A stretch of DNA of 64,000 nt from Psilocybe azurescens (taxonomy: Eukaryota; Basidiomycota; Agaricomycetes; Agaricales; Agrocybaceae), in contig JAJIRX010000019.1 of assembly GCA_023853785.1 (NCBI GenBank), positions 248,001 through 312,000 of the forward strand, given 5' to 3'. The stretch's first letter is position 1, and each line of letters opens with the position of its first letter. This document shows positions 1 to 34,715 of this stretch, piece by piece. The notes beneath the pieces were generated by a model, which searched no databases, had not been told where the DNA came from, and saw only the letters and a program-made list of their open reading frames with translations. The translations under genes and the position numbers were made by a program.

Positions 1-1466
1 AGCGGAAATGACGACGCATGACAGTCAGTTTGGTGTAATCGACGCAGAGAATGGATTTACCCACCCCCTGAGAGTGGAAACGACAACGCATGGCGGTCAG
101 TTTGGGCGGAACAGCGCAGACAATAAATTCACTCACCCACTAAGAATGGAAATGACGGTGCATGACAGTCAGTGCTGTGGAAATAGCTCGTATAATCGAT
201 CCACGCACGGTCTGAGAGTGGAAATGACGATGCATGACAGTTAGTTTGGTATAAACAGCGCAGAGCATAGATTCACTCACCCACTGAGAGTGGAGACGAC
301 AGATGGCAGTCAGTTTGGCAGAAACGGAGTAGACAACGGAGTCGCGCACAAGCTGTGAGTGAACGCGACAACGCATGCCGGTCAAAACAGGGCATAAAAA
401 GGTCACAAAACGGATTCACGCACATCCTGAGAGTCGATACGACGATCCATGACAGTCAGTTTGGTAGGAAAAACTCAGATAATCGATTCACGAACTTCCT
501 AAGAATGGAAATGACGATGCATGACAGTCAGTTCACTAGAAATGGCTCATATGCTCTAGTTACGCACTTCCTGAGAGTAACAGTCAATTACGCAGGATCA
601 GCTAAGATAATCGATGTACATACGAGCTGTGAATCAAAATGGCGGCGCATTACAGTCAGTTTGGTAGAAAAACTCAGATAATTGATGGACGCACTTCCTG
701 AAAGTTGAAATGACCACACAAGACAGTCAGTTTGGCAGGATCAAATCAGATAATCGATTCACGTACCAACTGGGAGTGGAATGACCACGCACGACAGTCA
801 GTCTGGGAGAAAACACTCAAATAATCGATTAACGCACGTCCTAAGAGTGGAAATGACCATGCACGACAGTCAGTTTGATGGGAATAGCTCAGATAATTGA
901 TTCACTAACCCACTGAGAGTGGAAATGATGATGCATGAAAATCAGATTGCCAAAGTCAGCTTGGACAATCGATTCACGTACATACTGAGAGTGGAAATGG
1001 CGATCCATGACAGTGAGAACTGTAAAAATAGCTCAAATAATTGTTTCACGCACTGCCTGAGGGTCGAAATGACGACAAGTGACAGTCAGTTTGGTAGTAA
1101 AAACTCAGATAATCGATTAGCTCACGTCCTGAGCGTGGAAATGACGACGCACGACAGTCAATTCGGTTGGAAAAGCTCAGATAATCGATTCACGCACTGG
1201 CTGAGGACGGAAATGACGACAGGTGACAGTCCGTTTGGTTGAAAGAACTGAGAAAATAAATTCACTCACCCCCTGAGAGTGGAAACAAAGATGAATGGCG
1301 GTCAGTTTTGCAGAGTCAACTCAAACAATAAATTCACTCACCGCCTGAGAGTGTAGACGACGATACGGGATGGTCAGTTTGGTACACGTAGCTCAGAAAA
1401 TTCTTTAACGAACTTCCTGACAGTTTAAATAATCACCCACAATAGTCAGTATGCCACACCTCAATA
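1..1466 (+). repeat. 72-bp satellite array 1 (cut by window start)
   Basis: This is a head-to-tail array of diverged units of about 72 bp, roughly twenty copies. Each unit carries the landmarks GATTCACGCAC, CTGAGAGTGGAAATGA, GCATGACAGTCAGT and CTCAGATAATC. This array has the variant TTTGG after CAGTCAG, where array 2 mostly has TTGGG. The copies become irregular towards 1380-1466, and the tail (AATAATTCAGTACACCTAC) is matched after array 4 near 46070. Because 72 is a multiple of three, one frame stays open across units, which explains the long but spurious reading frames here. Confidence 0.93.
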
Positions 1467-2886: not shown

Positions 2887-3371
2887 TGTGATGGAGAAAA
2901 CTACGGATATTGAACAATCAAGGGGAGGATGGGAGGTGGTTGGGAGTATAAGGGCAGAGCAGATGAAGAAAGAGAACGGCAGTGAAGAGAATTGACGAAC
3001 ACAGCCAGTCTTTGCCATATCCCACGGTCGGACCTCCTATTAGGATCCTAAATCGCGCCCGAATATATCGCAACCAACATAACGTTAATGGCAGTGTCGA
3101 CCCATGTCAGCACAGCTATGGACGAATATTCTCACCGTGTCTTGTACCTGAGCTCACTCCACATAACGGTGCTTGCAGCAGTCACAAACGATTTTACTTC
3201 AGTAATCTATGTTGGCTACACTGGGTACATTTTTCGTACAGAACAATTCGACACTGAAAATTCAGAAACTCCAAGACATTTTTGACGACCTCTTGACTGA
3301 CCCGCACTCCTTTCATGAAATATTCTATCAGCCAGATAGCCCGGGAATCCAATAGCATGGCTAGCACATGT
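2887..3371. other. 5' flank of the ubiquitin-like gene, conserved in all three blocks
   Basis: No convincing gene. The flank aligns by eye with 26745-27215 in block B and 47471-47698 in block C. Landmarks are TATAAGGGCAGAGCAGATGAAGAAAG (in parts), GAACACAGCCAGTCTTTG and CAGCTATGGACGAATATTCTCAC. It contains the empty sites used to define insertions in block C. A TATAAG lies about 55-60 bp upstream of the gene's ATG on the opposite strand sense, so a promoter role is only a guess. Confidence 0.6.
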
Positions 3372-3887
3372 CACTGCTGGCAGGGGGGGGTTTTAGGCAG
3401 GGTAAAATCTAGGTTAAATATTAGCTTGATTGTATTAAATTTATCCAGCTTTCACCTAATCGAAAAGACAATTAAAATGAAAACTGTGACCTGGCTCAAA
3501 ATAGTCGAAACAAGAGAAATTTAACAAGTCTTTTATGGCGTGATTTATATTTAATTTTATGGAGATTTTGTGCCACCGAAAACAATAGCAACATTTGATA
3601 TTTATGGAGAATTGTTCCTCAAATTAAATGTTAAAATTATTTATGGACAAAAAACGATCGAAAGGCAACTATTATCAATAATTTCATACTTTCTAAAAGT
3701 AAAAATCGATTGTGACATTTTACCGACAATAAAAATCCTGCCAAAAGTTATACTTGAACTGCGCCAAAAGGAATAGGGTGCTGAAGGCCCCTCTGTGCGG
3801 GTGCCTAGCAACCCGATTTGAGCACACTCGAACCTAGTATTCCTTCAGGCAATTGATAAGCAGTGAGACGGAGATTAGATAGGTTTG
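3372..3887. repeat. Left terminal and subterminal region of the CACTA element
   Basis: AT-rich, no gene. It begins with the terminal inverted repeat and carries short motifs resembling GTGACATTTTACC (near 3713) and GCAACATTTGATATTTATGG (near 3588). Related motifs occur at the other end (GTGACATTTTACC near 18628, CAACATTTTATCGG near 18586). Such subterminal motifs are the usual transposase-binding region in this superfamily. Short open frames here look random. Confidence 0.65.
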
Positions 3888-6800
3888 TTATCTTACCCGA
3901 GATAAGGAGACCACGGCGATGACATTGCGATCTTCCCACCGCATGGGACAATAGGCGAAGTGCGAAGCGATATTATCAAGTGGATACAGTTCGAGTTCAT
4001 CGAGTTCTTTGCTCCATAACTGTGCCCGGAGGAAAGGGAAAGACGAGAACGGATCAATTTTGACCTCAGATGGCATATAGCGTTGGGCAGCCGCAAACAT
4101 TAGCAAAGTTTCAGGGTTATCGGGTAAGGAGAGCTGTACGAAGTATTCAATCTGAGCGGGGAGCATTACGCCTTGCCGTCCCGAGTCAATCAAAACTGAG
4201 CTATTTCCCAGATGACGTGAAGCCACTGAATATGTGATTCCTTTGATAGTGAGTGTCTATATCACCGAGATAGAGTTAGGGCGATCGCCATCAAAGGTCT
4301 CGAGGATACAGGACATTAATGCAGGAGGGATTCTGGTATTAGGAGTAGTCGGTTTTTCGTCAATGTTATCAACATCGTCCAGGTTCCTGATGGCAAAGCT
4401 TAACATGTCGGTCGCCAAAGTATCTCGGGTCTGAGGTTGAATAAACTTCTGAAATATGGGCTTGCAGTGTCGAATAACTTCAGGAGTCCCTGTTTGCTCA
4501 AGAATCCGCCGAAGGTTCGATGAACGGACAAAACTTTCAGCAATAGTCACCTCATATTCACCTGCCCATATTGAAATAAATAAAATATCACATAACTTGC
4601 TTTATAAAATCAATCATACCTTGTTTGTAGTTGGTTAGGATGCGCTGGAGCATCCCAATCATACGTTCAAACGGAAATGCCCACCAAGAATGCACAGGAC
4701 CATATAGAAGGATGTAGTTGGCCAAGTGGAGTGCCATATGGTGGTTGGGAACAAATTTGAAGGTCGGAAAGAGCTCTTTTATTCAGCTCAAGTAAGCCTG
4801 CATGTGCTGCAAGTACTCATCGGCGTGGCAGCGAGACATTTTTGTGAAGTGGCGATAGACACCGCGGAGAGGAGAGAAATCGTGACATCCAGGATTTTCT
4901 GGCACCGCACTGATTGTGGATCTCCTGGATCTGCAGACCACCAAAGACGCATAAGGGTAATAGGGAAGAACACAGCGCCCAGAACTCGCCATTGGTCCGC
5001 TTTTAGTTTACCGTGACTAGCAGATCCCAACTTTGCTGGAACGGAGGTGAACCACGAAGGCGTAATTGTAGATGAGATGTCATCATGAATTTGTTCCATT
5101 TCTTCCTTATTGAAGATGTGGCCACAATTGGTCAATGTAGTGACATGTCCGTAAGGGTCAGTTTGCCTTTCGACCTGGATTTTACGCTGTGGGTAGGTGA
5201 TATGTGCATTGAGTATCATCACATACTGAATGCGTAGACATGAAAACATACCCATTCTAGAATACCACGGGCATAGTCTGCCCGGGTGAAACGGGAAACC
5301 TTACGGCCGTCAGTGGCCAATGGTTTACACCCACGATGCGCGAGTTCCGAGCAAGCAAGGTCCAGTGCTGCAAGACGGAGATTCGACAACCCTTTAACCC
5401 ATAAAGCCATGCCAATTTCGGTTTGCAAGTCCTGGTTGAGAGGTCGAGTTAAAATTTTCATTAGTCGAACAACACCCTTTTTGTCTGCAGGATCCATGGT
5501 GGTCCAGCGATCGGAGAATAGCAAGTCGATTGAAGGAGTATCGACGTCTGGATCTTTGTCTAATCGTATACCAAGAATGTCCTGAAAATGTTTATTGATT
5601 ACACCCAAAAAGAGATTGTGCATGGGATCGATGACAACAAAGCGGGTAGGATCAAAATAGGGGAGACACAGAAGCTCCGACCATTGTACACCTGTTTGAG
5701 CAAATATTTCTTCACTCTCGAGTCTAGTCGTGGAACTGATGTACGCCTGTGCAGATGTACATGTTTCTTCATTAGTTCAGGGCCGCCAGAGGTGATTCTC
5801 AAGGTGTCCATAGCCATGCACGTTGCGGGTACAATGACATATGTGGCAAAAATTCTTATGGGCAACAGAACCAAATCCTGCTAATTTTTTGGCCACAATT
5901 AAATCACATACTAAGCACGCGATAGCGCACCGAATCAGTCTTCCATTTGGATGACAATGGGTGTGTGTAAACCAAACACCGGGGCACCAAAGTTCCAAGA
6001 AAAAGTCGACAATAGGCTGAATATAGTGGTTCAACGTGTCGAGTGGAGGTTCATGAGGGCCAGGTATAATACCAGCGAGAAACATGTATTCCGATTTGTA
6101 GCGAGTATCGGGAGGAAGGTTGAGACAAACTAAAGATATAAGCCCAATTGAGACCTTCTTTCCCGCTTGCTTATTCGACAGTGGGTTGAAAAAGTCAACC
6201 GACAGGGAGAAGACATAGTGACCTTCTTCGCCGCTTTCGCTGAAAAGGTTTCCATTCGGCCCTTTGAAATTTCTCAGCATATCGCCATCAAAGATATCGT
6301 TCATGTCTTCTCCGTTGCTGCCTGAGTTAGTCCATGCACTGTCCATTTTCGCTTCCAACCCCGGTTGCCCTAAGAGGCGTCCAATCCAATCCTTCAAGTC
6401 GTAGGCCACATATGTTTTGATCGGAACCGAAATCATAGAGCCTGAAATAATGCGGGGGGCGAACAGGGGCATTTTGCACCGTATTCCAAAGCGACGATGG
6501 GTGCAAAAGGAGGGATATATGGGTATCGGCGATCCTTCATTGAACGTTGGCTTGTAGGAGGCGTGACAATCAGTGTCGGGGCAAACGGCATAGATAGTGG
6601 CCTTGGCGTCAAGGTTGAATTCCTTGTCAGCGGTACGAGGGTCGATTGGGAAATCAGACAGTAACTTGACGTCAGCGCTGGGAGAGCGATGAATGCTCGC
6701 GCATGAGGCATAGCTGAACGATATAACGCAACATGGCATATAAAAGAGCACATCCCCTGCGATTAGTTCCCGATATGACCTGGCAAGCAACGACCATGAA

Positions 6801-7571
6801 TATAGAAAGTTGGATTAGAGGATCACTCGGCGACATGAGAGGTTTAAAATGATGGTCTAGAGGTTACCAAGAGTAAGTATAAATAGTGTGTTGGAATACG
6901 ACTGGGATGTCAATTACCGTTTGAGTATTCGATGGAAGATTTCTTAGGGTGCTGGACAACTTCTTGGGCCTTTTCCCAATCTTCCTTCGCAGATTGCAAC
7001 ATTCTCTTGATGACATCAACTTGTTTCCGGACGGCGTCCTTAGCTGCAGTGACGGCTGGAGATTTGCAGGTAATTTTGGTAAGATCTGATTCGAGATGGC
7101 GGCAATTGTCAATTGATTTGGCCAACGGGAATAGTGGAGCACGAAGGAAAGGCAATCTCTGCGAATGGTGAAGTTTGGTGGCGACTTCCACGTGTAGGGT
7201 ACTGGCTGAAAATTCTATTTCACTCAGACGTTCAAGGACCCGATGTACACGGGCAATCCTCACAGATGAGTCCTCCGTAGGCTGATACAGAGACGGGGAT
7301 AGATCGTGGACGATATCAAGGGAAGAATCTGCTTTCGGGAGTTGGATAGTTTTGTCGTAGCCAGATGTTGAATTATGGTATCAAGTTGGTTCTGAATAAC
7401 GTCTTCTGCAGCGTCAACAGCTTTCTGGGCTAAAGCAGATTGACTGGGAGCGCCTGCATGCTGATGCTCCTGGGCTGTTCGATCATGAAGGGAGTGGGCC
7501 TTCTGGGTACGAGGGTCGATATCTTTGCCTCCGCACTTGTAGAATGCACAATGGCAGGGAACTTTGACCAT
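3888..7571 (-). pseudogene. Tnp2-type CACTA transposase, decayed
   Basis: Read on the minus strand it starts at the ATG before VKVPCHCAFYKCGG, a typical N-terminus of this basidiomycete family, followed by a helical segment. The central block (6790-5777) carries the conserved run from SYRELIAGD to AGFGSVAHKNFCHICHC. After an in-frame TGA at 5779-5777 comes VIDPMHNLFLGVINKHFQDI (about 5650-5580). It continues with DQWRVLGAVFFPITLMRLW (near 4990), a stretch around FVPNHHMALHLANYILLYGP (near 4710) and the C-terminal part ending VIAVVSLSR (3900). Family knowledge: these proteins catalyse cut-and-paste transposition of CACTA elements. At least one frameshift near 7360, another near 4890 and the TGA break the gene. 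It fills the left quarter of the element and is transcribed towards its left end. I am confident of the family and do not expect an active product. Confidence 0.88.
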
Positions 7572-7920
7572 ATCTGTAAGAAACCCGACACCCGTTGTAC
7601 GACGAAGAGATCGCTGGAAGACAGTGAAATGTGAAGGGATGTGATTTGGGGAGATATTGTACAGCAGACACCCGATGTACAAAGAAGGGAGCGTCGGAAT
7701 GGATGAAGTTGTTGAGGGTTGAAATTGGGAGTGACAAAGACGGATGAGATGTTGAGGGCAAAGCTTGCGGCTCTGAAGAAATACTTGAGGTTTGAGCGAA
7801 TATAGAACAATTGTTGCCTTGCAACCATTCTTGCTCGTTCGCCGGCCGCCCCCACTGAGAAAGTGTTATTGTTCTCAAAAGGGAGAAACATCTTGAAGGT
7901 CTTGAAGTCCGGAAACTGAT

Positions 7921-8201
7921 ATCTGGACACCCAGATCTCATGTTATAAGCTCGTACTGAACATTGAAACCGTCCACTGGACACCCAGTGGACGATCTCGT
8001 CAAGCGTGGGCGGAGTCGGTGTCTGCAAACTGCGTTGGGTCGTGTTGGGCATTGAACGTTGAACGTTGAGATCATCCACTAGACACCCAGTGGAAGATCT
8101 CGTCAAGCGTGGCAAAGTCGGTGTCTGCGAAGTGCGTTGGGACGTGTTGGGCATTGAACGTTAGAGGTTGGGATCGTCCACTAGACACCCAGTGGACGAT
8201 C
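7921..8201. repeat. Hairpin cluster 1: four loop-conserved hairpins in ~90-bp tandem units
   Basis: Hairpins lie at 7921-7936, 7970-7993, 8070-8099 and 8172-8201. Each has the 8-nt loop GGACACCC or AGACACCC flanked by complementary arms. At 8172-8201 the arms GATCGTCCACT and AGTGGACGATC pair perfectly over 11 bp; at 7921-7936 the arms are ATCT and AGAT. The last three sit in tandem units of roughly 90 bp that also carry TTGGGCATTGAACGTTG and CAAGCGTGGG. About 300 bp of this tract is duplicated at 11883-12203. Confidence 0.85.
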
Positions 8202-8849
8202 TTGTTCAAGCGTGGGCGGACTCTGCGAAGTGGTGTTGGGTGATTGTATGAAGTCCGCCGAAGCTCTTACCAAGCACCACCAAACAATTGAACCACCCGC
8301 TAGCTCGTTCTCCACTCAACCTGTACTATCTCTGGCTCTCAACTCCATATCAACTAGGTGTCTGGTTGATGTGGAGTTGATATCCGTCGGTCATATTCCT
8401 CTCTCTCATAGGAACTGTCAACTGGGTGTCTAGTTGAGTTCCTACCAACTTGTAATTACTCGACTCAATCGTTCAGATATATCATTCGGTAAGTGCTTGG
8501 GACCTTCTACATGAAAAAAAAATAGAGAATATAATAAGACTTCTTAAGGGAACTTCCTTCCAAAGCATATCCTCGCTCTCGACGCTTTCAACTCCATATC
8601 AACTGGGTGTCTAGTTGGATATGCACCACCTTTCTTCGACACCAACTAAAGCTCATCCCACCTTTCGCCTTGAAGCTTGCCCCATTCGATACCGTCTCCG
8701 TCATATTCATCCTCCTCCGATGGCGGAAATGCTGCTTTCGGATCCCATTCAGTTATCCCCGGTCCTTTCCTTCCTGCCTGAGCCTTGGTGGACTGCTCGA
8801 CGATCTGATTGATCCCTTCCAGTGTACGTCTTGCTGCCTGTTGAAATTA
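8202..8849. repeat. Hairpin cluster 2 (8340-8623) in a gene-free stretch
   Basis: Three hairpins share loops of the GGGTGTCT type. The first (8340-8379) has 15-nt arms, CAACTCCATATCAAC against GTTGATGTGGAGTTG, with a single T:G pair. The second (8411-8442) pairs TCAACT with AGTTGA and continues with GGAAC against GTTCC. The third (8595-8623) pairs CATATCAACT with AGTTGGATATG, one base bulged. I see no credible gene in this interval. Confidence 0.82.
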
Positions 8850-10330
8850 TCAGTATCTCCTTACATGTATAATGCAGGAATATTTACTTGTGAAGCAAGA
8901 GGTGCCCAAATCGCCGACGTCCAATATAATACCAGAAGAATTATCAGAAGATTCAAAATCCTTCCCGACCTTTCCCGCTATTGTAGTCACTTTCATCGTG
9001 ATATCTTCGCCTTTTAATCTGACATTCATCGGTAGGTTTCTCAACAATTCTCGGTATGTTTTCTTTCTTACCGTCTTTTCCCATACAGTGATCTTGAAAG
9101 ACCCGGCCGATACACCACTTGCTATAAAATGTGCCTCGGTGGTTGTCGTTGTCTAGTGTCATGGTCAGAGGTACATTCAAGAGAGAAATTATCACGACGT
9201 ACACTGATTGCTTGCACCTCCACTCTCTTGCTAGCAGGGGCCAAGACCTGGATGGGAATTGACGACAAATTGGTGAATATATATACCCTTCCATGGTCAC
9301 TTCCACAGACAATCGCTAGGATCCCTGCTCGGCAAAGGCTCCATCTTTGACACACTTCTTGGTACTGGGGATTGCGAAGGCGCAAGAGGGAGAAGAGCGT
9401 GGTAAGTTGTACAAATCAAATCCTTTTGACAAATTGTCGACAAGTAATAGCTTGCTTGAGGGACAGGTCGTCGCATTGCCACTGATCAACTTTGTGAGTA
9501 TCCAAAAGATCGTGCTTATTTTGGACTTACATTCCTGACTTCAGGACCTTTCTCCATTCTTCTCGAGATGTCTCTACATCGTGGCAAACCCTGAGAAGAG
9601 CTACTGTAAGTCTCAGCGGTCTTCGTTCCAAAAAGTGCTTACATTTCGCCAGTTTCCAGAATAAAAACTAGGATCTTCCTGCCTCCCTCAAAAATTGAAC
9701 AGATCGCGGTATGCCGATCTTCTTTCTTTGTTGCTTTTCACTGACCACAGCTCAATCATAGTTCCTGTTGATCGACTAATTTATATTACTCCACAATGGT
9801 GCCAGATATAACTCACCATTTCTACCAATATCGTACAAGGCAATACTACCATGGTGACTTGTTATTGCAAGGTGAGATTTTTGCTGTCAAATGCAATTGC
9901 TTCCAACGGGGTCACTAGCTTCAAACACCCTATTACTAGCCAATTCGACCATTCGTGCCTTGAAAGTTGTCAACATAATTTATTCAGGAAATGTTGAAAA
10001 AGGCCTACATCGACCCTTGGACGCTGATAAATGACTACAAGACCACGACCAGTACCAAACGCGATTGGCTTCAGTTCGTCGTTCCCTGGGCTGCCCAGCC
10101 AGGTCAGACACGTAATTTGGCCCCATCGTTTCCCAGGATCTTCGAGAATATCCAGGCACTTCTTCGTGGAAATCTCCCAGATGCGCACCGCTTCATCGTC
10201 ACCTACAACACTTTCAGATTCAGCGAAGCCGTTAGTCATGACATACGACCTCCACTAGCCAGTAGTTCGCCTCCGTGGGTGAAAGATAGACAGTTCACTG
10301 GGCCTGTTGGTCCTTTGAACTTAGCGTACT
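8850..10330 (-). pseudogene. WD40-repeat protein remnant (CACTA cargo)
   Basis: On the minus strand the piece at 10239-9970 reads VVGDDEAVRIWEISTKKCLD, then GQITCLTWL and FGTGRGLVVIYQRPR. These are WD40 blades of a kind repeatedly found in mushroom genomes. Further along come ITSHHGSIALYDI (near 9830) and ILAIVCGSDHGRVYIF (near 9290). Between them the frame is lost several times, for example around 9900. WD40 propellers are protein-interaction scaffolds, but no function is expected from this copy. It is transcribed in the same direction as the transposase and sits between hairpin clusters 2 and 3. Confidence 0.72.
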
Positions 10331-10778
10331 TGTAGTAGGCCTAAATCATGCGTAATTAATAAGTTATTTCATGAACCCTAAAACACACCTCATCTGGTGA
10401 TGAGCGCAGATAGACGGAAACAAGACGAAAACATTTATAGAGGAGATCAGCCAACATGAGAGTCGATAGTACTATGTCAATTGCTTCTGAGGTCAACCCA
10501 TCCTATTATATGAGAACCGATTTTATTGTTGTCATTCACTTATTGTTTACTTAACGACACACTTAGATGACGATGATGTATAAATCTGGTAAGTGTGTCC
10601 TGGCACTGTCATCTCGGGTGTCAATATCCCCAAGGCGAAGACAAAGACAAAGCTGTCGGATCCGGATTTAAAACAATGCACTTATTATTCAAGCTGGTAA
10701 ACGAAATACAAAGCAAATACAATACAGGAATCAGACTATAAGTGCGTCCACATCGAAACGCAATGTAAACTTCGAACC
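10331..10778. other. Gene-free stretch inside the CACTA element
   Basis: No gene or repeat recognised. It separates the minus-strand WD40 remnant from the plus-strand gene at 10779, so it could hold divergent promoters, but I see no clear motif. Confidence 0.5.
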
Positions 10779-11567
10779 ATGGATGCTCAGATTGAAACCC
10801 ATCTTCCACTGATCACGGCTAGGCTCATATTTGCTCCCAAAGTGTTTCACCCTCCTCCTACCATTACTCCACGAATGGAGTTTCCGTCAATTATTTTAGA
10901 AGAACGAGAGCATTTTCCTACTCCTGACATCAGGCGCCGCGAACTACTCCAGTCCAGCGAGCGACTACTCCAGTCAGGCGAGCGACTACTCCAGTCCGGC
11001 AAGCGACTACTCCACCCAAGCGGGTCAGAATTTCCGAAGCTCCTTCAAAGGGTGTACAACGTGGGCGCATCACCAGGCCATTCAACCATAGGAGATGCAA
11101 TCGAGGTCGAGTTCATCATGTCAGATGATGACGAGATCATGGGCGACGACGACGGCGAAGAAGCGAGTGAGGACGAAGAAGCAACCGGAAGTGAGGGAAT
11201 CAGAAAGGGGTTGATACCGAAGCCAAAGGGTGATGTATTGCATCCAGGAAGAGGCGGCTATAACCTCAGCAAGGCGTTAGGTTGGAACCAGAAGACCTAT
11301 GACAGTGTATTGGTAAGTCACCCTGTAGAGTCTAAATACAAAGCCGCTGACCGAAAACTTAAGAGTGTTGTCACAAAATTGGCCAAGGAGAAGCTTGATA
11401 CAAGCAAGAGCTATTGCAGGCAAAGCAAGAGAAAGGTTCATCAGCTCTTAGAGACTGTCAGTGACATTTCGTTCCCCAAATTATGTTCAAGGACTTACTT
11501 TAAGAATCTAGGTTCACAAAGAATTCAGTTTCCTGAAAGACTACGAGAAAGATTGGCCAGTACATGA
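10779..11567 (+). CDS. Conserved agaricomycete hypothetical protein, C-terminal fragment-like (cargo)
   Basis: An open frame of 262 codons starts at ATG 10779 and stops at TGA 11565-11567. Residues about 48-83 contain three to four copies of a short repeat (RLLQSGE/RLLQSGK). Residues about 114-145 are strongly acidic (SDDDEIMGDDDGEEASEDEE). A block with PKPKGDVLHPGRGGYNLSKAL around residues 147-170 resembles the GRxxxGGYNL core of a very expanded mushroom family of unknown role. After that the match weakens: a CNKxxxxxQ-like region remains, but the usual DYExDWxVxDF end is only found out of frame (KDYEKDWPVHD near 11540), so this copy is probably frameshifted. Hairpin cluster 3 follows directly. 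Confidence 0.55.
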   Translation: MDAQIETHLPLITARLIFAPKVFHPPPTITPRMEFPSIILEEREHFPTPDIRRRELLQSSERLLQSGERLLQSGKRLLHPSGSEFPKLLQRVYNVGASPGHSTIGDAIEVEFIMSDDDEIMGDDDGEEASEDEEATGSEGIRKGLIPKPKGDVLHPGRGGYNLSKALGWNQKTYDSVLVSHPVESKYKAADRKLKSVVTKLAKEKLDTSKSYCRQSKRKVHQLLETVSDISFPKLCSRTYFKNLGSQRIQFPERLRERLAST

Positions 11568-12415
11568 CATGCTGAAGACTTACCTAAAAACAGTTCACAA
11601 ACAGCTCAGAATACAAGGGGAAGAGAGACCACTGAGGAGATCGAGAAGGTAAGGAATTACATATAAGCATATCAGCAGAACAGCATTTGACGAGACTTAC
11701 AGATTGCAAGGCGGGCTTCATCGAAGAGTAAGGAGTAGATAGTAGTACAATATACCACAAATAAAGAGGTCCTCTGGACACCCAGAAGACGTTCAATTCA
11801 AACAAGATATGTTCTGGTCACCCTGAACACGTTGAAGACAGACAGAGAGTGAGCATCCTGGTCGTATTACTGGTGCACTTGAGCATTGAAACCGTCCACT
11901 GGATACCCAGTGGATGATCTTGTCAAGCGTGGGCGGAGTCGGTGTCTGCAAACTGCGTTGGGTCGTGTTGGGCATTGAACGTTGAGATCGTCCACTAGAC
12001 ACCCAGTGGAAGATCTTGTCAAGTATGGGCGGAGTTGGTGTCTGCGAAGTGCGTTGGGACATGTTGGGCGTTGAACGTTGAGGTTGGGATCGTCCACTAG
12101 ACACCCAGTGGACGATCTTGTTCAAGCATGGCGGACTCTGCGAAGTGTGTTGGGTGATTGTATGAAGTCCGCCAAAGCTCTTACCAAACACCGCCAAACA
12201 ATTAAATGCTCAACCCTATCTCCTGGCATATCAACCAATGGGGTATATTAAAAAATTATGAAGCTACAGAATCGTGTTTCCTGGATCTTCAACGTCTCCG
12301 GAAGCAAAGCCATTCTCCACCTACCCTCAAACCAGACTGCCTCACACAAGACAAGAATCTGAAGGGTAAGACATATCATCAAATTTCAACAAATTTGCAT
12401 TGCAGGTGCACTAAC
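11568..12415. repeat. Hairpin cluster 3 and duplicate of cluster 1
   Basis: Hairpins lie at 11769-11790 (GTCCTCT/AGAAGAC), a degenerate one at 11811-11828, then 11893-11916, 11986-12015 and 12088-12117. The last again has perfect 11-bp arms (GATCGTCCACT/AGTGGACGATC). The tract 11883-12203 is a near copy, in the same orientation, of about 7959-8284, extending into the flank GATTGTATGAAGTCCGCC. From 12204 to 12415 I see no gene. Confidence 0.82.
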
Positions 12416-13221
12416 TCACTTTTTGACAGCAAAGTCTACGCGTCCTGCATCCTTTCCACCCATGTCAACTGGGTCAGACGGATTTTTCTTGCCTATCCTC
12501 ATGACCACAATATCCCCGTGCCATTTTCCGCCCATCTTGTCAATAACATTGTTGTACACAAGGCCTGTTCGGTTCTTACATGATATCTGGAATTCATGTG
12601 ACTTGCGGCCTTCAAGGATGACTATGTGATAGTCGTAGATGTATGACTTGGGGAATGGATCTCCAAAAGCACTGTGCATCTGCTTCAATTTCGGAGCTGC
12701 ATCTTGGACCATTATATTGCCAAAGAATGGCCTGGTTTCACCTTGGCGATAAAGTCGCCCCCCTGACTGTGAAATATTTGACCTAGGAAGTAGTGAGCTT
12801 GTATAAGTACAATAACCCAATATATCAATTTCTTTCATACCTTCTTCAAAGCATAAACTGGGAGTTTTTGGGCATTTCTGATGTTCAAAGGCGATTGAGC
12901 ACAAAGATCGACTTCTTTGCTGTTTGCTTTGCTCCCAACTCCGAGACCATACACTTTATATAATAATTATTGTGAGCCCTGTTGTAACCATGTAATTCAT
13001 TCTACGCACTTGTGCATGTAGATGGATAACAAAATCATAACAATTATAACAATAAACTTGTGATGGACAACCGGACAACTTACTTGATTTGTATTTGATG
13101 TTCGCTCAGTTTTGCAAGTCGACAAAAGAACGCTATAAATACCGACTTGCATTATAGCGGCAAGTGGATCGCGAAGGGTCGGATTGAGTACTAGTTTGCA
13201 TTGCGTCGACACTTTCTCCAC
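12416..13221 (-). pseudogene. Conserved mushroom hypothetical gene remnant (cargo)
   Basis: The main exon (12782 to 12426, minus) reads SNISQSGGRLYRQGE to GKDAGRVDFAVKK. It has the core KWHGDIVVMRIG and an ending of the form GKDAxxxDFAV that I recognise from a multi-copy family of unknown function in mushroom genomes. A GT-AG intron of about 55 nt (12839-12783) precedes it, and a donor follows AVKK. Upstream exons towards 13221 (LVLNPTLRDPLAAIMQVG) are short and out of phase. No role can be assigned. Confidence 0.45.
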
Positions 13222-13360
13222 TTGGCGACTCAGGAGAAAGGAGCCATTGTTCGGTTACTCGGTAGCTTGAAATCGTATACCCATGTAGTGAAACAATAAA
13301 GTTATTATATTCAATATATAGCAGTAGTATTACGGTTGCAAATTGCTTTACCGAAACACC

Positions 13361-15096
13361 ATGCCTTCGAGTTCATTCCTACAGCAGATTTTACCACTGT
13401 CCAGGCCGCGGACTAGAACCAAGGACATTGAGATGAACGAAAACACTGCATCTAACAGCAAATTCCAGAAATCGACCAACGACGAAGAGGTATTTACACG
13501 ATGCTATATCTGTCCATTTTCTAATACAGAGATCTAGAATCTCATGGGCGTGTTTACTCCCCCCCTCACGTTATATACCACCGCCTTTTGGATATGTGCT
13601 AGGACTGGTGCCGACTTGAGCCACCCATTGGCAGGGGAGCAGCTGGATGCAGTTCCAAGACCACTCATGGATGATAGCCCTGGACGTTTGTCCGCCATAA
13701 CCTCTGTCCAACCAATTTCAACTTCAATTCCTTCCGGCGCCTGCATTGGGATCACCTTTTCAGTTCAAATTTGGTGAAAAAGGCCAATATCCCACAAGCG
13801 TCCATCCCATCTTGAAGGCAGAGCAGGGAAATATAAGGGTACTGAACGACTTCCGATCTCGGAAGAATCGATGGTCGAGAAAACTCGCGTCGTCGAACAG
13901 CAGGCATTGGCAACCAGGCAGATAATTAATCAGAAGAGTGCTGAGGTAGAGGCTGAGGTATGCCTTAAAATGCCCTGTATATGCAAATTGACTTCAACAT
14001 ATATAGGCCGAGAAAACACGCTTCATCGAACAGGAAGGACTGGCGACGAAATTGTTGCTTGGACAGAGGGAGGAACAGATCATTGAATTAGAGGCCCAGG
14101 TACAGCTATATGTGCCCTCGAAACCATTTAAAAGCTAACAAATGATAGGTCGACGTTTATAAAACCGAATTATCAGAGTTCATGGCACGACTGGAGAAGC
14201 TGGAGGGGGATATAGCGAAAAGGGACAATCTAGGCAATGGGTCAACCACTCAGGTTGCTGCCATATTGACCCCAAATTCCTCCAACAATCCTTTGCCCAA
14301 CAATCCTTTGCCCAGTGGGGAAGACATTCACATGGCCAGTGCCACTGAAGTGGGGTCGGAAACGGTCATGCTCCATAAAGCATCACACGCAGAAGATGCT
14401 GCGACAACCAAAGAGAGCATTTCGAATGAGGGAGACTCAAGTTCTATGGCAAAGGATGCCGAGGAACGGGGCCAGGAACCAATTGAATTCAACGACGATG
14501 AATTCGAAGGCGATGATGTCAACATGTACGATGACGACAAGGGAACCAAAAACAGGAAGGGAAGAAAGTTACGGGAGAAAACACCGTTGTGCTGCGTTGA
14601 ACAATGATGATGATGAAATGACCGCCAAGTCCGACAGTGATAGTGACAAGGAGGGCGATGACGAGGACGACGAGGACGACGGGGAAGAATTGGTAAGATG
14701 CCTTTTTGTCTTGGAGATCTACGCTGACTCTCTCACAGAACGACGATAAATCTTCCATCCCAAAGCCTGTCTTTCATTTCCAAAGACCACGCTGGAGGTG
14801 CTGGGCCACGATTACGAGTGGATCCTACAAAGCCTTTCAATCCCACCACCAAGCCAACACCCAATCCCACAAACATGCCAACGTCGTTACTTCAGCCACT
14901 TGGAATGACACCAGAGCAAGTTGCAGCAATTGTCCAGATTGTCCTTGCGATTCAGGGCCAGAATTCGGGCAAGTCGGTCGCTCCGATACGGACCTCAACC
15001 GACGAGTCGAAGGGAAGTGGTGCACCAGGAGGCATCGGTCGAAACATCGCACATATATCGCCATTGCCCCGGACACAGTATCAGTCCTCACTCTAG
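13361..15096 (+). pseudogene. Coiled-coil and acidic-tract protein remnant (cargo)
   Basis: Coding pieces can be followed from the ATG at 13361 (PSSSFLQQILPLSRPRTRTK). A coiled-coil segment runs from EEQIIELEAQ (near 14080) over short introns to LEKLEGDIAKRD (14220). A strongly acidic tract follows (near 14480-14695: EFNDDEFEGDDVNMYDDD, then DDEDDEDDGEE). A proline/threonine-rich tail with LGMTPEQVAAIVQIVLAIQG lies near 14900-14960. Frame is lost near 14570 and again near 14770. A GT-AG intron is plausible at 13963-14006. The layout (coiled coil, acidic stretch, low-complexity tail) matches a multi-copy mushroom gene type without known function. Confidence 0.5.
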
Positions 15097-15710
15097 ACAC
15101 CCAGAGCGAGAAGAGAACCGTGAACCAACCGCGGGGCGAAGTCGCTGTTCCTCTAGACACCCAGAGTAACATCCTCAGCCACGACTCTAGACACCCAGAG
15201 TAGTGGATGGGAAGGCACAAGTGACAATGTCACAAGTGCCAACAGTCGAAGTGAGGCGCAGACGAAGTGCACACATGATGTTTGTACGCAAAGACGCTGA
15301 CAAACACTAGTGCCAGTTGTTGTCCTAAGTCGTTTCTCAACCTCTTTGACGACGACCAACGCACTCTGGGTGTCTAGAGTGCTTCTACAGGCCGTCTGTC
15401 TACTCCTACTTATCTCTCTCTTTAATACACACTAATTCACTCGCATAACTTCGTCTCTCTTCATTTTGACCACTTCCACTTATACCTCTACCCAACCTCT
15501 ACCTTCTCTCATTACGATGTGTTGACGCTGTATTCTGGGTGTCTAGAGCCCAGAGTCCTCCACCCAACCTCTCCCTCTTCGACGTGTTGACGCTGTGTTC
15601 TGGGTGTCCAGAGCCCAGAGTCCTCCATCCCAACCTCCAATACCTCAAATCCTACTGCTATATCTCCTTTTGGCGCTTTGACACCGTGTTCTGGGTGCCT
15701 AGAGCCCTCA
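15087..15710. repeat. Hairpin cluster 4 (seven hairpins)
   Basis: Hairpins lie at 15087-15110 (CTCACTCT/AGAGCGAG), 15147-15170 (GTTCCTCT/AGAGTAAC), 15184-15201 (ACTCT/AGAGT), 15361-15382 (GCACTCT/AGAGTGC, perfect) and three degenerate ones at 15534-15547, 15599-15612 and 15690-15703. The loops are again AGACACCC or its complement GGGTGTCT. The arms differ from those of clusters 1 and 3 yet remain self-complementary. The last three lie in tandem-like repeats containing GTGTTGACGCTGT. Confidence 0.83.
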
Positions 15711-15849
15711 GTCGCTTCGCTCTTGTCCAACACACTCAACGCGAATTTTATCGTTCAAACAACTTCTATTCAATGTATGTATTCAGTATGTTTGATAGGC
15801 TCTCATTGCTAAACTCCTGCTAGAATGAAACCTGGCCTCAGTTCCAGCG

Positions 15850-18201
15850 AAATTGACCATTCTTTCGGGCATGCTTTCCTTAGGAATGGGGAGATCTACT
15901 ATTCCCCCAACTGCTCGCTGGTCGAGTAGCCGTACCGGAATACCACGAAAACAATCCCTACCTCTTTCATCGCCAGGATGCGCGATATGAAAGGTTCCTA
16001 TTGCCCACATGGTGGACGCGACCATATCACTATCTCGCGTTTGTTCCCCTCACGACCCTCATTCGATGGACTCGTGTTTGGTTGCCTCCGTGAATTTGTC
16101 CCCCACATCATATCATATGGAGATGGAGATAAGTACGGGTTGGCATCAGAGAAGGTTTCTCAGTGGAAGGATTTGGAGGATGGCCTCCTCATGATCGCTT
16201 TCCTCCTCAATAAACATCACTGAACGCAAATTTGTGCGGCCCTGAAGCCACCTCTTCCATCTTTTCTCGGGTTTGGCAAAGCCTATCGGGAACACCGCTC
16301 TGCTTGTCTTTCTATCGCTGCCTCACGCGATTGGTTCCTCATGTGGATGGCATTAATCTCTGGCAAGATGGCCGATATTTTGAGCTTAAACGAACCCGAG
16401 GAAGCAAAAGACTGGTTCTCTCTGCTCAGCGACGACCATATTCCAGAAGCTTGGTTGAATTCCATGATAGCCTCCAGGATATGCAGCTTTTCTCAGCAGT
16501 GTCCACGTGTCGGGACCTTCCTCAACATTCACAATCCACAGCCACACCAACCAAGCGTCCAATGGTTCCTTGCCTTTCATATACCTGTTTGGTATTGCTG
16601 GCACCCAGGCGGTCCTGACCAATTGCGGCCCCCAGCGCACTTCTTACAAGATGCGACAACTTTTATCCCCAAGTCACCATCTCGAACGGTTCCGATCGTT
16701 TCCTTCTTCGGCACCATCACCTCGCTCCTTTATCTCCCCTTCGCCGACCTACGGAGCTCTCACTTGATGAGTACCAGAAAGCCAAGAATACGACGCCGTT
16801 TCAAATGTCTGGGATTGCTGTGAGTACTTTGGAGAACCTGACTACAATGACAACTATGACGACAACAACAACAATTACGGGGATATGCACCCAGAGTCCT
16901 CTGCCCCAGAACTTGGCACAGAAGCTCAGGACTATGAAGCCATCCTCAACGAGTGGGTTGAGGAGGTTCAAAGAAATCCGAATGCTTATTCCATCGACCT
17001 GAGAAGGTATTCCGAGCGCGGTCCAGAGACCAATCTGGAGCATAGTGCTGGTCAGGTCAATATTCATCAGTACCTATACCGCTACTACGGGTTTCTGGCC
17101 CCTATACCTATTTCTGATGCCACCCTGTAAATTCTAACAATGACTGGGGTGAATGTCTGAAATCTGTCGGCCTCAATGCCAAAGTCAATGAACCTCTTCT
17201 GGGACTCACTGGCCCTATCGTCAATTTCATCAAAGGGATGCAACAAGCAGCTGGACCACAGGCCTTCAAATGGGACCTTCTGGCGGATAATTACAATCCT
17301 CTAACCAAGGACCTCATCTCCCGTCACCTTCGGTCGACTTCCAAACGGGCGAATATCTCCTTCTGAAATCCTCTCTGTGCAATGATAGGCCGCGTGATTG
17401 GCATATCGCATTAACAACATCTGCCAATGCACTCTATGTAACCAGATGGCTGGTCGATATCAAAACCGAGAGCGTCCCGATTGAAGATGTGGCCCAACAT
17501 CTTGCCGAAGAAGGCATGTCTTTTCGCACATATCTCACCCTAGACCCACTCCCATCAACGATTTCTTTGTCTGGGATCAAAGCAGCAATTCCTCGGCGTA
17601 GCGCCAACTACACATTTACCGTCAACGATTACCAGACATATCTTTCAGACCACAATCGACTCCTGTCCACCCCTCGTGGCCGAGCAGCTATTCTTCGAGG
17701 GGGAATTGTAGGCCGCCTCGCCAAAGAGTGTCTTGGAGTCGACACGGTCCTCTCTGGCCCTTCTTCAGTAGTAACTACCTATCGTCTTGGTTGTTCCGTT
17801 GACCACTCCCAAGGGACTTTTTGGGATGACAATCTCACCGACGATGAACTTGCCATAATCTGTGGGATGTTTTACTGCCATACTGGTATGTTACATGTTC
17901 ATTAAGTCTATTGGTATCTAACCATATTTTAGGAAATCGAGACCAAATCGCAAAACTCTCATGGTGGCCGCTGCCTGAATATTGGGACCAAGTGAGTAAC
18001 TCGTTCAACTGGGGACATTGGACGGAATGGGACGAACACTGGTATCAAGAGCATTTGCTGAAGATCCAAGATGGGAAAGTCCTGCCTCTTAGCCATACGG
18101 GATGGCGGCGTAAATTGAAGTCGGCGCCTTCTTGGAGAAAGGTCACGATGATAAATCTTGAACAATCGAACAAAATATGTGCATCCCTTCCCATTGCCTA
18201 G
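15850..18201 (+). pseudogene. Conserved agaricomycete gene of unknown function, decayed (cargo)
   Basis: Pieces of one long protein follow each other on the plus strand. They include LFPSRPSFDGLVFGCLREFV (16040), SFLGFGKAYREHRSA (16270), RDWFLMWMALISGKMADI (16340), EAWLNSMIASRICSFSQQCP (16450) and QPSVQWFLAFHIPVWY (16560). The C-terminal part is DDELAIICGMFYCHTG (17850), then after a short GT-AG intron (17886-17931) AKLSWWPLPEYWD and YQEHLLKIQDGKVLPL, with the stop at 18199-18201. I recognise the sequence of motifs from a family present in very many copies in mushroom genomes; its function is not known to me. Several frameshifts (for example near 16220, 16800 and 17130) show it is dead. Confidence 0.6.
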
Positions 18202-18728
18202 ACCTTCAATTTTTATTATCCACTTTGATTCCGTTACCATAGCTCAGCCTTGGCTTTCCGCATCAGGTCACTGTGAGTCTGTGACCTCCGTCGAACCCCG
18301 ATTGGCGAGTCGCATGGAGGGGCGATAATTATTACTACTTGTTAAATATGTCATTTTTGCAAAAATTTTACCGACGGCAAAAACAATTGAGAAAGTTTAA
18401 GTTTGAGTGTCAAGAAAAGAATTGGTATGCATTTCTTTTTGTTCCTTTTTTCTCCTTATACAAATTTGATCTATTGTTGTCCATAATATTTGGGCAAAAT
18501 GTGTCGTGTATGCCCGATTTGCCCTCCCGATAAAGTTACAATTGAAGCAATATTTTATTGAGACTACAATAAACTAAATACGCAACATTTTATCGGTCTG
18601 CAATTGTTACTAAAAGGAGACCTTTTAGTGACATTTTACCTGTGTTATTATCTGACTAAAACTAAAACAAGCAAACTGATCTTTTACGAAGATTTTGCCC
18701 TATCTAAAAACGGCCCCTGCCAGCAGTG
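18202..18728. repeat. Right subterminal and terminal region of the CACTA element
   Basis: AT-rich and gene-free, ending in the inverted repeat CCCCTGCCAGCAGTG. Motifs such as TTTTACCGACGG (18362) and GTGACATTTTACC (18628) match motifs in the left subterminal region. Confidence 0.65.
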
Positions 18729-18731
18729 TGT

Positions 18732-19632
18732 ACCTGTCAAGATGTCATACAACTATATCACAACGGTTCCCTCTCGAGAATTTTAAAAATGCAAAGCCAT
18801 TAAAATTTGCAGCACATGGAAATCAGAATGAGACGAAGATGATTACATTTTAGTACATCTGCTGCTAACCCATATGTCGGTCAGAATATGAAATGTTTGA
18901 GCCAGGGCTTTTTGATGGATCAGCAATAAGAAACCGAGTAAGAGCATATCACCACAAATTTTGAACGAGCAGTGGGTGCGAATAATGACAGCACAATAAA
19001 ATAGTTCTATTATTTAAATGTGATTATAGAAAGCATAAATAAAACATGATTGTGTCAGCGGTCGTAACAGATAAAGCATCCACAACCAATTCATAACGAT
19101 AAATCAGTACGTAAAGAAAATAGAGGGGAGAGACAGGCAATTGAATGAAAATATACACCTCCAGTCATCGTCGTGCTATATATTGGGAGAATGTGGTATA
19201 TATGCCCTAGGAAAGTCGCGTCGCGAGTCCACGGCGCGCCAAACCAGACCGCACGCGCCGCGTCACGCTCTCAACACGTTCTCACGTGACTTATCATTTT
19301 ATTTCTCCAGTTCGCCTAGACGTCTCTTCACTAAGTACAACATCGACGAAAGGTAGACAAACTCCCTCTAACCGTCGTATCCCTTATCTGCCGCACTCTG
19401 ATTATATATATATATATATATATCTTGTGATCTCTTGCATTATACGACCACGGAATTATCGTCATTTTCGACTGCGTTGGCAATAAGCTCTGGTGGCGGT
19501 ACGAAACGAAAAGGAACAGACATCTATACGCACCAAGACCGAGGAGGCTGGGGATAAGCCAAAAACCCCAGGTCACACGACACAAACACCGACACCAACA
19601 CTTACGCACAAATCACGACGAGACAATGACGA
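18732..19632. other. Block A sequence upstream of the helicase-like pseudogene; (TA)n tract
   Basis: No gene. The stretch aligns with 27225-28670 of block B (minus its inserted retrotransposon) and 61040-61455 of block C, with landmarks CTCCAGTCATC, CACGTGACT and CATTATACGACCACGGAAT. A (TA)n microsatellite occupies about 19403-19423. CACGTGACT and the TA-rich tract just before the pseudogene's first exon could be remains of a promoter. Confidence 0.55.
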
Positions 19633-23560: not shown

Positions 23561-26500
23561 CGTTGTTCTCTTGGTGGATGAAATGTTTTGTCGCTGATGA
23601 TAGCATGACAGTAAGTTGGGCACGATCAGCACAGACAATAGATTCACACACTTGCTGACAGTGGAAATGACGAGATATAACAGTCAATCGAGCACGATCA
23701 GCTCAGATAATCGAACCACGCACAATCTGAGAGTGGAAATGACGACACATGATAGTCAGTTGGCCAGGTTCGACTCAAATCAATGTTTCACGCACTTCCT
23801 GAGAGTCGAAACGACGATGAATGACAGTCAGTTGGGCAGGATCAGGTCAGATAATCGATTAACGCACTTCCTGAGAGTGGAAATGATGACACATGACAGT
23901 CAGGTGGCTAGAATCAGCTCAGATAATTGATTCACGTACAAGCTGAGAGTGGAAATGACGACGCATGACAGTCAGTTGAGCAGAATTAGCTCAGATAATC
24001 GATTGACGCACTTGCTGAGAGTGGAAATGACGACGCATGACAGTCAGTCGGGCAGGATCAGCTCAGATAATCGATTCACGCACTCGCTGAGAGTGGATGT
24101 GATGAGACGTAACAGTCAGTCGACCACGATCAGCTCAGATAATCGATTCACGCACAATCTGAGAGGGGAAATTACGACGCATGATAGTCAGTTGGGCAGG
24201 ATCAGCTCAGATAATCGATTCACGCACTCGCTGACAGTAGAAATGACGAGACATAACAGTCAGTCAAGCACGATCAGCTCAGATAATCGATTCACGCACA
24301 ATCTGAGAATGGAAATGGCGACGCATAATAGTTAGTTGGTTAGGTACGACTAAAATAAATGTATCACGCACTTGCTGACAGTGAAAATGACGAGACATAA
24401 CAGTCAGTCGAGCACGATCAGCTCAGATAATCGATTCACGCACAATCTGAGAATGGAAATGACGACGCATAATAGTTAGTGGGCCAGGTTCGACTCAAAT
24501 AAATGTATCACGCACTAGCTGAAATTGGAAATGACGACGCATGACAGTCAGTTGGGAAGGATCAGCTCAGATAATCAAATCACGCACTTCCTGAGAGGGG
24601 AAATGACGACGCATGACAGTCAGTTGGCTAGGATCAGGTCAGATAATCGATTCACGTACAAGCTGAGAGTGGAAATGACGACGCATGACAATCAGTTGGG
24701 CAGGATCATTTCAGAAAATCGATCGGCGTACAGTCTGAGAGTGGAAATGATGACGCATAACAGTCAGTTGGGCAAGACCAGGTCAGATATTCGATTCACG
24801 TACACGCTGAGAGAGTGGAAATAAAGATGCATGAAAGTCAGTTGGGCTGGATCAGCTCAAATAATTTTTTGACGTACACGCTGAGAGTGGAAATAACGAC
24901 GCATGACAGTCAATTGCGCAAGACCAACTCAGATATTCAATTCACGCACTTCCTGAAGGTGGAAATGACGATGTATGGCAGTCAGTTGGGAATGATCGGG
25001 TCAGATAATTGATTCACGCACTTCTTCAGATTGCAAACGACGACCCATGATAGTCTGTTGGACCGGATCACCTCTGATGTTCGATTCACGCATGGTCTGA
25101 CAGTAGAAATGAACATGTACGACAGTCAGTGACCCAGGATTAGCTGAGAGAATCGATTCACTCACTTGCTGAGAGTGGAAATGACGATGCATGACAGTCA
25201 GTTGGGCAGGATCAGCTCAAATAATGGATTTACGTACACGCTGAGAGTGAAAATGACAACGCATGACAGTCAGTTATGCAGGATCAGGTCAGATATTCGA
25301 TTCACGCACATCCTGAGAGTGGAAATCACGACGCATGACAGTCAGTTGGGCAGGATCAGCTCAAATATTCGATTCACGCACAGGCTGAGAGCAGAAATGA
25401 TCGCGCATAACTGTCAGTTGGGCAGGATCAGATCAGATATTCGATTTACGAACCTCCTTAGAGCAGAAATGATAATGCAACAAAGTCAGTCGGGCAGGAT
25501 CGGCTCAGATATTCGATTCACGCACACGCACATCCTGAGAGTGGAAATGACGACGCATGACAGTCAGTTGTGGGGGATCAGCTCTGAGAATAGATTTACG
25601 TACACGCTGAGAGTGGAAACGACAACACATAACAGTCAATTGGGCATGATCAACTGAGAGCATCGATTCACGCACGTGCTGAGAGTGGAAATGACAACAC
25701 ATAACAGTCAGTTGGGCATGATCAACTGAGAGCATCGATTCACGCACGTGCTGAGAGTGTAAATGATGATGCATGACTGTCAGTTGGGCAGGATCAGCTT
25801 AGATATTTGATTCACGCACTTCCTGACAGTCGAAACGACGATGCAGGACACTCAGTTGGGCAGGATCAGCTCAAATAATGGATTCACGCACAATCTGAGA
25901 GTGGAAATGACGATGCATTACAGTCGGTTGTGAAAGATCAGCTCAGAGAATAGATTTACGTACAGCCTGTGAGTGGAAATGACAATGCATGACAATCAGT
26001 TGGGCAGGGTCATCTCAAATAATGGTTTCACGTACATACTGAGAATGGAAATGACAATACATAACAGTCAGTTGGGCAGGATCAGCACAAATGATGTTTC
26101 CACGTACAAGCTGAGAGTGGAAATGATAATGCATGGCAGTCAGTTGGGCAGGATCAACTCAAATACTGGATTTACGTACCCACTGAGAGTGGAGATGATG
26201 ACGCATGACGGTCAGTTCGGCAGATTCACCTCAGATATTCGATTCACGCACTCTCTGAGAGTGGAAATGACGACGCGTGACAGTCAGTTGGGCTGGATCA
26301 GCTCAAATAATGGATTCACGTACAAGCTTAGAGTGCGAAAAACTCTGCATGACAATCAGTTGGGGAGGATCAGCTCAGTTATACGATTCACGCACTTCCT
26401 GAGAGTGGAAACGGTGACGCACGACAGTCAGTTGGGAATGATCAGGTCAGATATGCGATTCGCGCACTTCATTAGATTCCAAACGACGACCCATGATAGT

Positions 26501-26700
26501 CTGTTGGACCGGATCGGCTCTGATGTTCGATTCACGCACGGTCTGACAGTAGAAATGAACATGTAAGAAAGTCAGTGGCCCAGGATAAGCTCAGATATTC
26601 GCTTCACGTACACGCTGAGTGTGGAAATGGCGATGCATGACAGTCAGTTCCTCACGATCAGCCCAGATAGTCCATTCACGCACGGTCTGACAGTGCGCAT
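23561..26700 (+). repeat. 72-bp satellite array 2 (about 43 units)
   Basis: This is the longest array in the window, nearly all in phase at 72 bp, with the consensus landmarks CGATTCACGCAC, CTGAGAGTGGAAATGACG, CATGACAGTCAGTTGGGCAGGATCAGCTCAGAT (in parts). Local higher-order structure is visible: around 23950-24520 units with CTGAGAGTGG alternate with units reading CTGACAGT and TAACAGTCAGTCGAGCACGATCAG, and two nearly identical adjacent units lie at about 25600-25760. It ends abruptly inside codon 10 of the ubiquitin-like gene remnant. Confidence 0.95.
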
Positions 26701-34710: not shown

Positions 34711-34715
34711 GGATC

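What the first reader, a model, noticed from the sequence alone, without database searches (positions are those of the whole stretch)
7921..15703. Family of hairpins with an invariant loop and locus-specific, covarying stems
Nineteen sites share the 8-nt core AGACACCC (complement GGGTGTCT). Their flanking arms differ between clusters but are always self-complementary: GATCGTCCACT/AGTGGACGATC, CAACTCCATATCAAC/GTTGATGTGGAGTTG, GCACTCT/AGAGTGC, ATCT/AGAT. Constant loop with compensating stems is the mark of a structure under selection or of a mechanism that copies flanking sequence as an inverted repeat around a fixed core. I noticed none outside the CACTA element, and they sit in the gaps between cargo genes. 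By loose analogy with structured cassette recombination sites they could mark module boundaries. I know of no described element like this.
Basis: partly seen in the sequence, partly recalled or inferred. Interest (0 to 1): 0.88.

Follow-up and report, generated by a model that had tools for sequence, protein, structure and literature searches.

The report
Family-coded hairpin arrays in fungal transposons
Four related jumping-gene families in one likely mushroom genome carry rows of small hairpins whose tip is fixed within a family while the paired stems vary together; they are likely RNA switches in the leaders of the transposon's own genes, which would give each family a private tag for controlling itself.

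Summary
The bare 8-mer is not enriched in the 70-Mb genome, but with closing pairs (CTRGACACCCAG) it occurs 262 times against 17 for the reversed control. Most of the 100 places listed lie in copies of two related CACTA transposons (CACTG ends, 3-bp target duplication, tnp2). Stems covary: 11 of 12 pairs change on both sides. Arm mismatches are G-U rather than A-C (27:3) in the strand running outward from each array centre, which points to RNA (or ssDNA), not duplex DNA. Arrays lie 3-4 kb inside the ends, in front of tnp2 and of a second conserved gene. Two further tnp2 families show the same architecture with other fixed cores, GGATCATCY and GGATATTCC; there the wobble skew alone is not significant (14:7). 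Best reading: leader RNA hairpins with a family-specific tip, likely read by a trans factor. Transcription, binding and function are not shown. Cassette recombination is not supported. Seven literature searches showed no description.

The parts
3372..18728 (.). Type I CACTA-type transposon, CACTGCTGGCA ends, TSD TGT at 3369-3371 and 18729-18731
   Evidence: ends and TSD read; copy in C515 with TSD TCA
3894..7571 (-). tnp2 transposase gene (exon matches 3894-7308; start codon proposed at 7571-7569)
   Evidence: PF02992 E 8.6e-11; exon matches to type II; ATG by reading
7654..8202 (-). Array A, left half: five hairpins (7654-7685, 7913-7944, 7966-7997, 8069-8100, 8171-8202), outward sense leftward into tnp2
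8344..8624 (+). Array A, right half: three hairpins (8344-8375, 8412-8443, 8593-8624), outward sense rightward
8885..10337 (-). Gene 2, conserved in type II; weak WD40-type similarity below cut-off
   Evidence: best E 0.01
10704..11640 (+). Gene 3, conserved in type II and in Psilocybe cyanescens (72%)
11764..12118 (-). Array B: four hairpins (11764-11795, 11889-11920, 11985-12016, 12087-12118), plus a weak one at 11804-11835; largely a duplicate of array A left half and centre
12419..12688 (-). Gene 4 piece, conserved in type II in opposite relative orientation
13778..15200 (+). Gene 5, open frames with intron-like gaps; no match in type II
15083..15208 (-). Array C, left half: three hairpins (15083-15114, 15143-15174, 15177-15208), outward sense leftward; overlaps the end of the gene 5 frames
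15356..15712 (+). Array C, right half: four hairpins (15356-15387, 15525-15556, 15590-15621, 15681-15712), outward sense rightward into gene 6
15825..18111 (+). Gene 6, conserved in type II; proposed ATG at 15825 after an intron-like stretch

Best explanation
These are arrays of hairpins with a tip fixed in each transposon family and varying but base-paired stems, likely acting as RNA structures in the leader transcripts of the transposon's own genes, where a family-specific factor is predicted to read the tip. Shown by sequence: covariation of the stems, the G-U over A-C asymmetry of the outward strand in types I and II, the place upstream of tnp2 and gene 6, the outward arrangement of the mixed arrays, and a different core in three of four families (types I and II share one). 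Inferred: that each array centre is a divergent promoter, that the hairpins are transcribed, that a trans factor (element-encoded or host) binds the tip, and that the outcome is control of the transposon's own expression (translation, stability or export). The stem would be selected only for pairing, to hold the tip, as in iron-responsive elements.
For: Covariation: 11 of 12 pairs with changes on both sides, 87.1% of cells paired against 66.6% shuffled and 37-44% slid; RNAalifold gives the same helix unprompted. Arm mismatches 27 G-U to 3 A-C in the GGGTGYCY strand, in both halves of arrays, against 13:18 beyond the stem. Outward strand has the more negative folding z in 10 of 10 half-arrays. 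Arrays upstream of tnp2 and of gene 6 in types I and II and, with another core, in type IV. Intron-like stretch between array C and the gene 6 ATG, and a similar one in type II. Analogous arrays with cores GGATCATCY and GGATATTCC in two further tnp2 families, at most 1 same-core hairpin in their shuffles.
Against: No transcript data at all. Half of the mixed arrays' hairpins (and array B) would lie on transcripts running antisense to genes 2, 3 or 5. In types III and IV the wobble skew is 9:0, 3:3 and 2:4 (14:7 together, p 0.19), and the outward strand is the more stable one in only 9 of 13 hairpins. Absolute folding energy favours the complement in 4 of 10 half-arrays. Copy-to-copy changes show no significant G-U preference in stems (23:15 against 55:51 in flanks, p 0.45). 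No reader protein was identified. Sites within arrays are partly duplicates, so counts are not independent.
Confidence: 0.5

Rival explanations
1. DNA operator or transposition-accessory sites: a TNPA-like or regulatory protein of the element binds the core in duplex or cruciform DNA, and the palindromic arms serve a dimer or extrusion.
For: CACTA elements of plants bind TNPA-like proteins at repeated, sometimes stem-loop-forming motifs (PMC2613891, passages); the arrays are inverted about a centre and lie at presumed promoters; array B repeats array A with its centre.
Against: Arrays lie 4.3 kb and 3.0 kb inside the ends, while the subterminal stretches show only two-copy repeats. Duplex or cruciform DNA gives no reason for G-U over A-C in one strand. 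A protein reading DNA arms would not leave them free to vary.
Confidence: 0.24
2. Small-RNA source or silencing-related hairpins: outward RNAs fold and are cut by Dicer, or shield the element from RNA interference.
For: Outward folding and antisense position towards genes 2, 3 and 5.
Against: Stems of about 8-13 pairs are short for Dicer (established knowledge, not tested) and their sequence is not kept, while the tip is; no small-RNA data.
Confidence: 0.12
3. Mutational upkeep: template switching during replication keeps turning imperfect palindromes around a fixed protein-bound core into perfect ones, without selection for the structure.
For: Explains arms that match each other but not other sites; two sites show compensated changes among copies.
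Against: Does not predict the G-U over A-C skew or G-U at the pair that closes the tip in 15 of 36 rows; the 5 exact cores elsewhere in the window have no palindromic arms.
Confidence: 0.08
4. Single-stranded DNA recombination sites marking cassette borders, like integron attC sites.
For: ssDNA hairpins could also tolerate G-T over A-C; gene order differs between types I and II; an 8.1-kb inversion separates type II subgroups.
Against: The inversion junctions lie in spacer between hairpins at a short near-match, not in the core; no recombinase was recognised in the 30 window frames scanned against Pfam, which do not cover everything.
Confidence: 0.05

Closest known systems
Iron-responsive element (IRE) of animal mRNAs
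   Same: Hairpin in mRNA untranslated regions with a fixed apical loop (CAGUGN; PMC9966554, passages)
   Different: Other loop, single elements rather than arrays, host genes; no Rfam match here
Smaug/Vts1 recognition element
   Same: Loop-specific reading on a non-specific stem; loop consensus CNGG plus 0-3 or 4 bases (PMC4053848, passages)
   Different: Here CUGG lies in the paired stem, not the loop, and type III has UUGG at most sites
Subterminal repeats of plant CACTA elements bound by TNPA-like proteins (En/Spm, soybean Tgm)
   Same: Repeated motifs, direct and inverted, some able to form stem-loops (PMC2613891, passages)
   Different: There the stem is the repeated motif and lies near the ends; here the tip is fixed, the stem varies, and the arrays lie 3-4 kb inside
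Integron attC sites (recalled)
   Same: Stem sequence varies while the structure is kept; one strand folds
   Different: As I recall, attC keeps conserved boxes in the stem and needs an integrase; no junctions at cores seen here

Membership tests
CACTA/EnSpm transposon (the host element) | CAC...GTG ends with inverted repeats | tested here: met
   CACTGCTGGCA at both ends of window, C515 and C529 copies
CACTA/EnSpm transposon (the host element) | 3-bp target-site duplication | tested here: met
   TGT, TCA and ACA in three copies
CACTA/EnSpm transposon (the host element) | tnp2-type transposase | tested here: met
   PF02992 E 8.6e-11, 41.9 bits over cut-off 28.6
TNPA subterminal repeats | position near the element ends | tested here: not met
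   nearest hairpins 4282 and 3016 bases from the ends
Iron-responsive element | CAGUGN apical loop | tested here: not met
   tip GGGUGYCY at nearly all rows; no Rfam match at E 1
[quoted passage not shown]
   CUGG is in the paired stem
Cis-regulatory RNA hairpin with fixed tip (works like) | tip conserved, stem varies with pairing kept | tested here: met
Cis-regulatory RNA hairpin with fixed tip (works like) | present in a transcript | not testable with these tools
   no transcript data held; only an intron-like stretch before gene 6
Cis-regulatory RNA hairpin with fixed tip (works like) | bound by a specific protein | not testable with these tools
   no reader identified
Integron attC-like recombination site | recombination junctions at the core | tested here: not met
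   one inversion examined; its junctions are in spacer

The most novel reading that the evidence does not exclude
Each CACTA family in this genome writes a private address on its own RNA: a hairpin tip, repeated many times on ever-changing stems in front of tnp2 and gene 6, that only the family's own protein reads. The address changes as families split, so the transposon tells its own transcripts from those of its relatives: a self-recognition code for a DNA transposon.
Probability: 0.3. Interest if true: 0.88.

Novelty: new variant of a known kind. Interest (0 to 1): 0.66.

Why it matters
Hairpins with a fixed tip on free stems are a proven way to mark an mRNA for one protein, but I know of none described as arrays in a DNA transposon with the tip differing between sister families. 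If they are RNA addresses, they make it testable how CACTA elements in fungi control themselves and avoid cross-talk, and each pair of tip and reader could become an orthogonal RNA-tagging tool.

Tried and rejected
Subterminal TNPA-type repeats: rejected by position. Site-specific inversion at cores: junctions are in spacer. Known RNA family: no Rfam match at E 1 in window 3372-18737. Selection visible among present copies: no significant G-U preference, perhaps because many copies are dead. Reader protein: Pfam on exon frames gave tnp2 plus weak or implausible hits (a Lipoprotein_3 match over cut-off at 25148-26566 lies outside the element, in a tandem repeat); AlphaFold models of a gene 6 piece and of gene 3 had mean pLDDT 49 and were not taken further. 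Relatives of tnp2 in viral contigs: none confirmed.

Other families: I sampled presumed leaders of 15 further tnp2 loci by stretches of 1.4-2.4 kb placed by distance from the tnp2 match, out of 65 tnp2 domain matches. Arrays at 5: C746 (type III) and C650, C497, C496, C649 (type IV). None at 10 at the main threshold: C815, C931, C554, C219, C712, C236, C580, C551, C781, C416. At a laxer threshold C712 (L091) gave one set of three identical cores (shuffles at most 1), not followed up. The stretches may miss arrays, and several of these loci may be decayed.

Literature: seven searches aimed at such arrays showed no description; two more were for the IRE and Smaug comparisons. I read passages of PMC12730594, PMC2613891, PMC4053848 and PMC9966554 and saw the other papers as listings only. 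One library of open papers was searched, so absence in print is not shown.
Full report
WHERE. Intron-like gaps and protein relatives point to an agaric near Psilocybe: gene 3 is 72% identical to a Psilocybe cyanescens protein, and a gene 6 piece is 97% identical to another over 15% of the query. That placement is an inference. The hairpins lie in a CACTA-type transposon, window 3372-18728, with inverted CACTGCTGGCA ends and target duplication TGT. The copy in C515 has duplication TCA and matches in blocks of 92-98% identity.

THE OBSERVATION. Exact AGACACCC occurs 14 times in the window against 1.74 expected, 12 inside the element and 2 outside. Of 16 exact RGACACCC sites in the element, 15 have 3-11 contiguous pairs at the core and one pairs beyond a mismatch; the 5 outside have none. 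A covariance model trained on them and 17 others gives the same 19, one weak twentieth, three opposite-strand echoes and nothing elsewhere. Genome-wide the bare 8-mer is no commoner than its reversed control (1919 against 2157); with the closing pairs, CTRGACACCCAG is 262 against 17.

TWO ELEMENT TYPES SHARE THE CORE. Of the 262 places only the first 100 are listed; most of these fall in copies of the window's element (type I) and of a second element (type II, 18.7 kb in C529, target duplication ACA). The two share tnp2, gene 2, gene 3, gene 4 and gene 6, with 26-74% identity over matched pieces and a different order; gene 5 found no match. Type II also uses the tip GGGTGCCC: CTGGGCACCCAG is 82 against 3. 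Some isolated sites elsewhere match the tip only (L024/L062, L025, L050, L084, L086), as chance would give, but L049 and L080 carry a good solo hairpin, L081 a weaker one, and L082 three good ones that I did not place.

COVARIATION. I aligned 36 sites (19 window, 3 from C153, 14 from C170) in the orientation GGGTGYCY; no gaps were needed. Other copies and the weak twentieth site were left out. Over twelve pairs, 87.1% of cells pair, against 66.6% when 3' letters are dealt anew (0 of 500 as high) and 37-44% when slid; 11 pairs have changes on both sides and one never varies; covariation 0.612 against 0.231. RNAalifold predicts the same helix unprompted. In a set of 29 site consensi, 165 of 232 positions pair, against at most 114 in 5000 exchanges of right arms. 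Sites there had been admitted partly on a stem score, which inflates pairing, though no exact-core site of the window element was dropped. Sites within an array are partly duplicates, so counts are not independent and the shuffles do not keep relatedness.

WHICH STRAND FOLDS. The stem score treated G-U and A-C alike. In the GGGTGYCY strand the arms (columns 5-12) hold 27 G-U to 3 A-C, 25:3 as distinct contexts; over columns 5-14 the skew is 16:1 in leader halves, 21:1 in the other halves and 3:1 in array B. The pair closing the tip is G-C (20), G-U (15) or A-U (1) in 36 rows. Beyond the stem (positions 12-16) the ratio is 13:18. Copy-to-copy mutations show no strand bias in flanks (55:51) and no significant preference in stems (23:15, p 0.45): mutation bias is not the evident cause, but present copies do not show the selection either. 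Outward strands have the more negative folding z in 10 of 10 half-arrays, narrowly in one, and absolute energies favour the complement in 4. This fits a single-stranded molecule running outward from each array centre, RNA most simply; ssDNA is not excluded.

PLACE. In the four mixed arrays of types I and II, sites with outward sense on the minus strand lie left and those with plus sense lie right; array B has only the left kind, next to a copy of array A's centre. tnp2 is proposed to begin at 7571, just left of array A; gene 6 at 15825, just right of array C, after an intron-like GTATGT...CTAG stretch, and type II gene 6 has a similar one (the type II tnp2 start was not clear). The other halves face the 3' sides of genes 2, 3 and 5. 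Purine content on the plus strand is 0.51-0.57 left of centres and 0.35-0.49 right, in keeping with divergent transcription. Transcription itself is not shown. A single further type II hairpin lies alone inside the element (L040 5755-5786).

OTHER FAMILIES, OTHER CORES. I sampled the presumed tnp2 leader at 15 other tnp2 loci. A search for hairpins sharing any core found arrays at C746 (type III, tnp2 54% identical; outward core GGATCATCY at five hairpins, plus a looser sixth) and at the type IV copies C650, C496 and C649 (core GGATATTCC or close; five, five and four hairpins), against at most 1 in their shuffles; C497 has the same five by pattern. Ten loci and four window controls had none at the main threshold. 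In C650 the same core recurs in three tandem hairpins upstream of gene 6 (L093). Arms vary and pair, and the outward order is the same; the cores of types III and IV are nearly palindromic, so their orientation rests on one to three central bases. The wobble skew is 9:0 in the type IV tnp2 array, 3:3 in type III and 2:4 in the type IV gene 6 array, together 14:7 and not significant (p 0.19), and the outward strand is the more stable in 9 of 13 hairpins.

REARRANGEMENT. An 8.1-kb internal segment of type II is inverted between two subgroups. Its junctions fall in the spacer between hairpins, at a short near-match, not in a core. Ordinary repair through short homology would explain it.

READING. 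A tip fixed within a family, free but paired stems, one folding strand, and a place before the same two genes in types I, II and IV match the logic of hairpins read by a loop-binding protein (iron-responsive element; Smaug element). Membership in either fails (passages).

Noticed in passing
window 4-1353, 23603-26683, 32578-33478, 34710-35118, 44587-45895: The same 72-base unit forms tandem arrays at five places across the window, about 6 to 43 copies each, 68-88% matches.
   Followed up: no
window 53684-53839; L060 781-936: A stretch of about 156 bases, 99.4% identical, lies in the window and also interrupts the centre of array C in the C465 copy; it looks like a small mobile element.
   Followed up: partly
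window 41591-42811: Long open frames in several overlapping frames on both strands, over CG-rich short tandem repeats.
   Followed up: no
L040 1219 and 9310 against L041 4239 and L042 813-858: An 8.1-kb internal segment of the type II element is inverted between two subgroups of copies, with junctions beside the hairpin arrays.
   Followed up: partly
L049 537-568, L080 519-550: Good solo hairpins with the type I/II tip (29.2 bits each) at places that I did not assign to either element.
   Followed up: no
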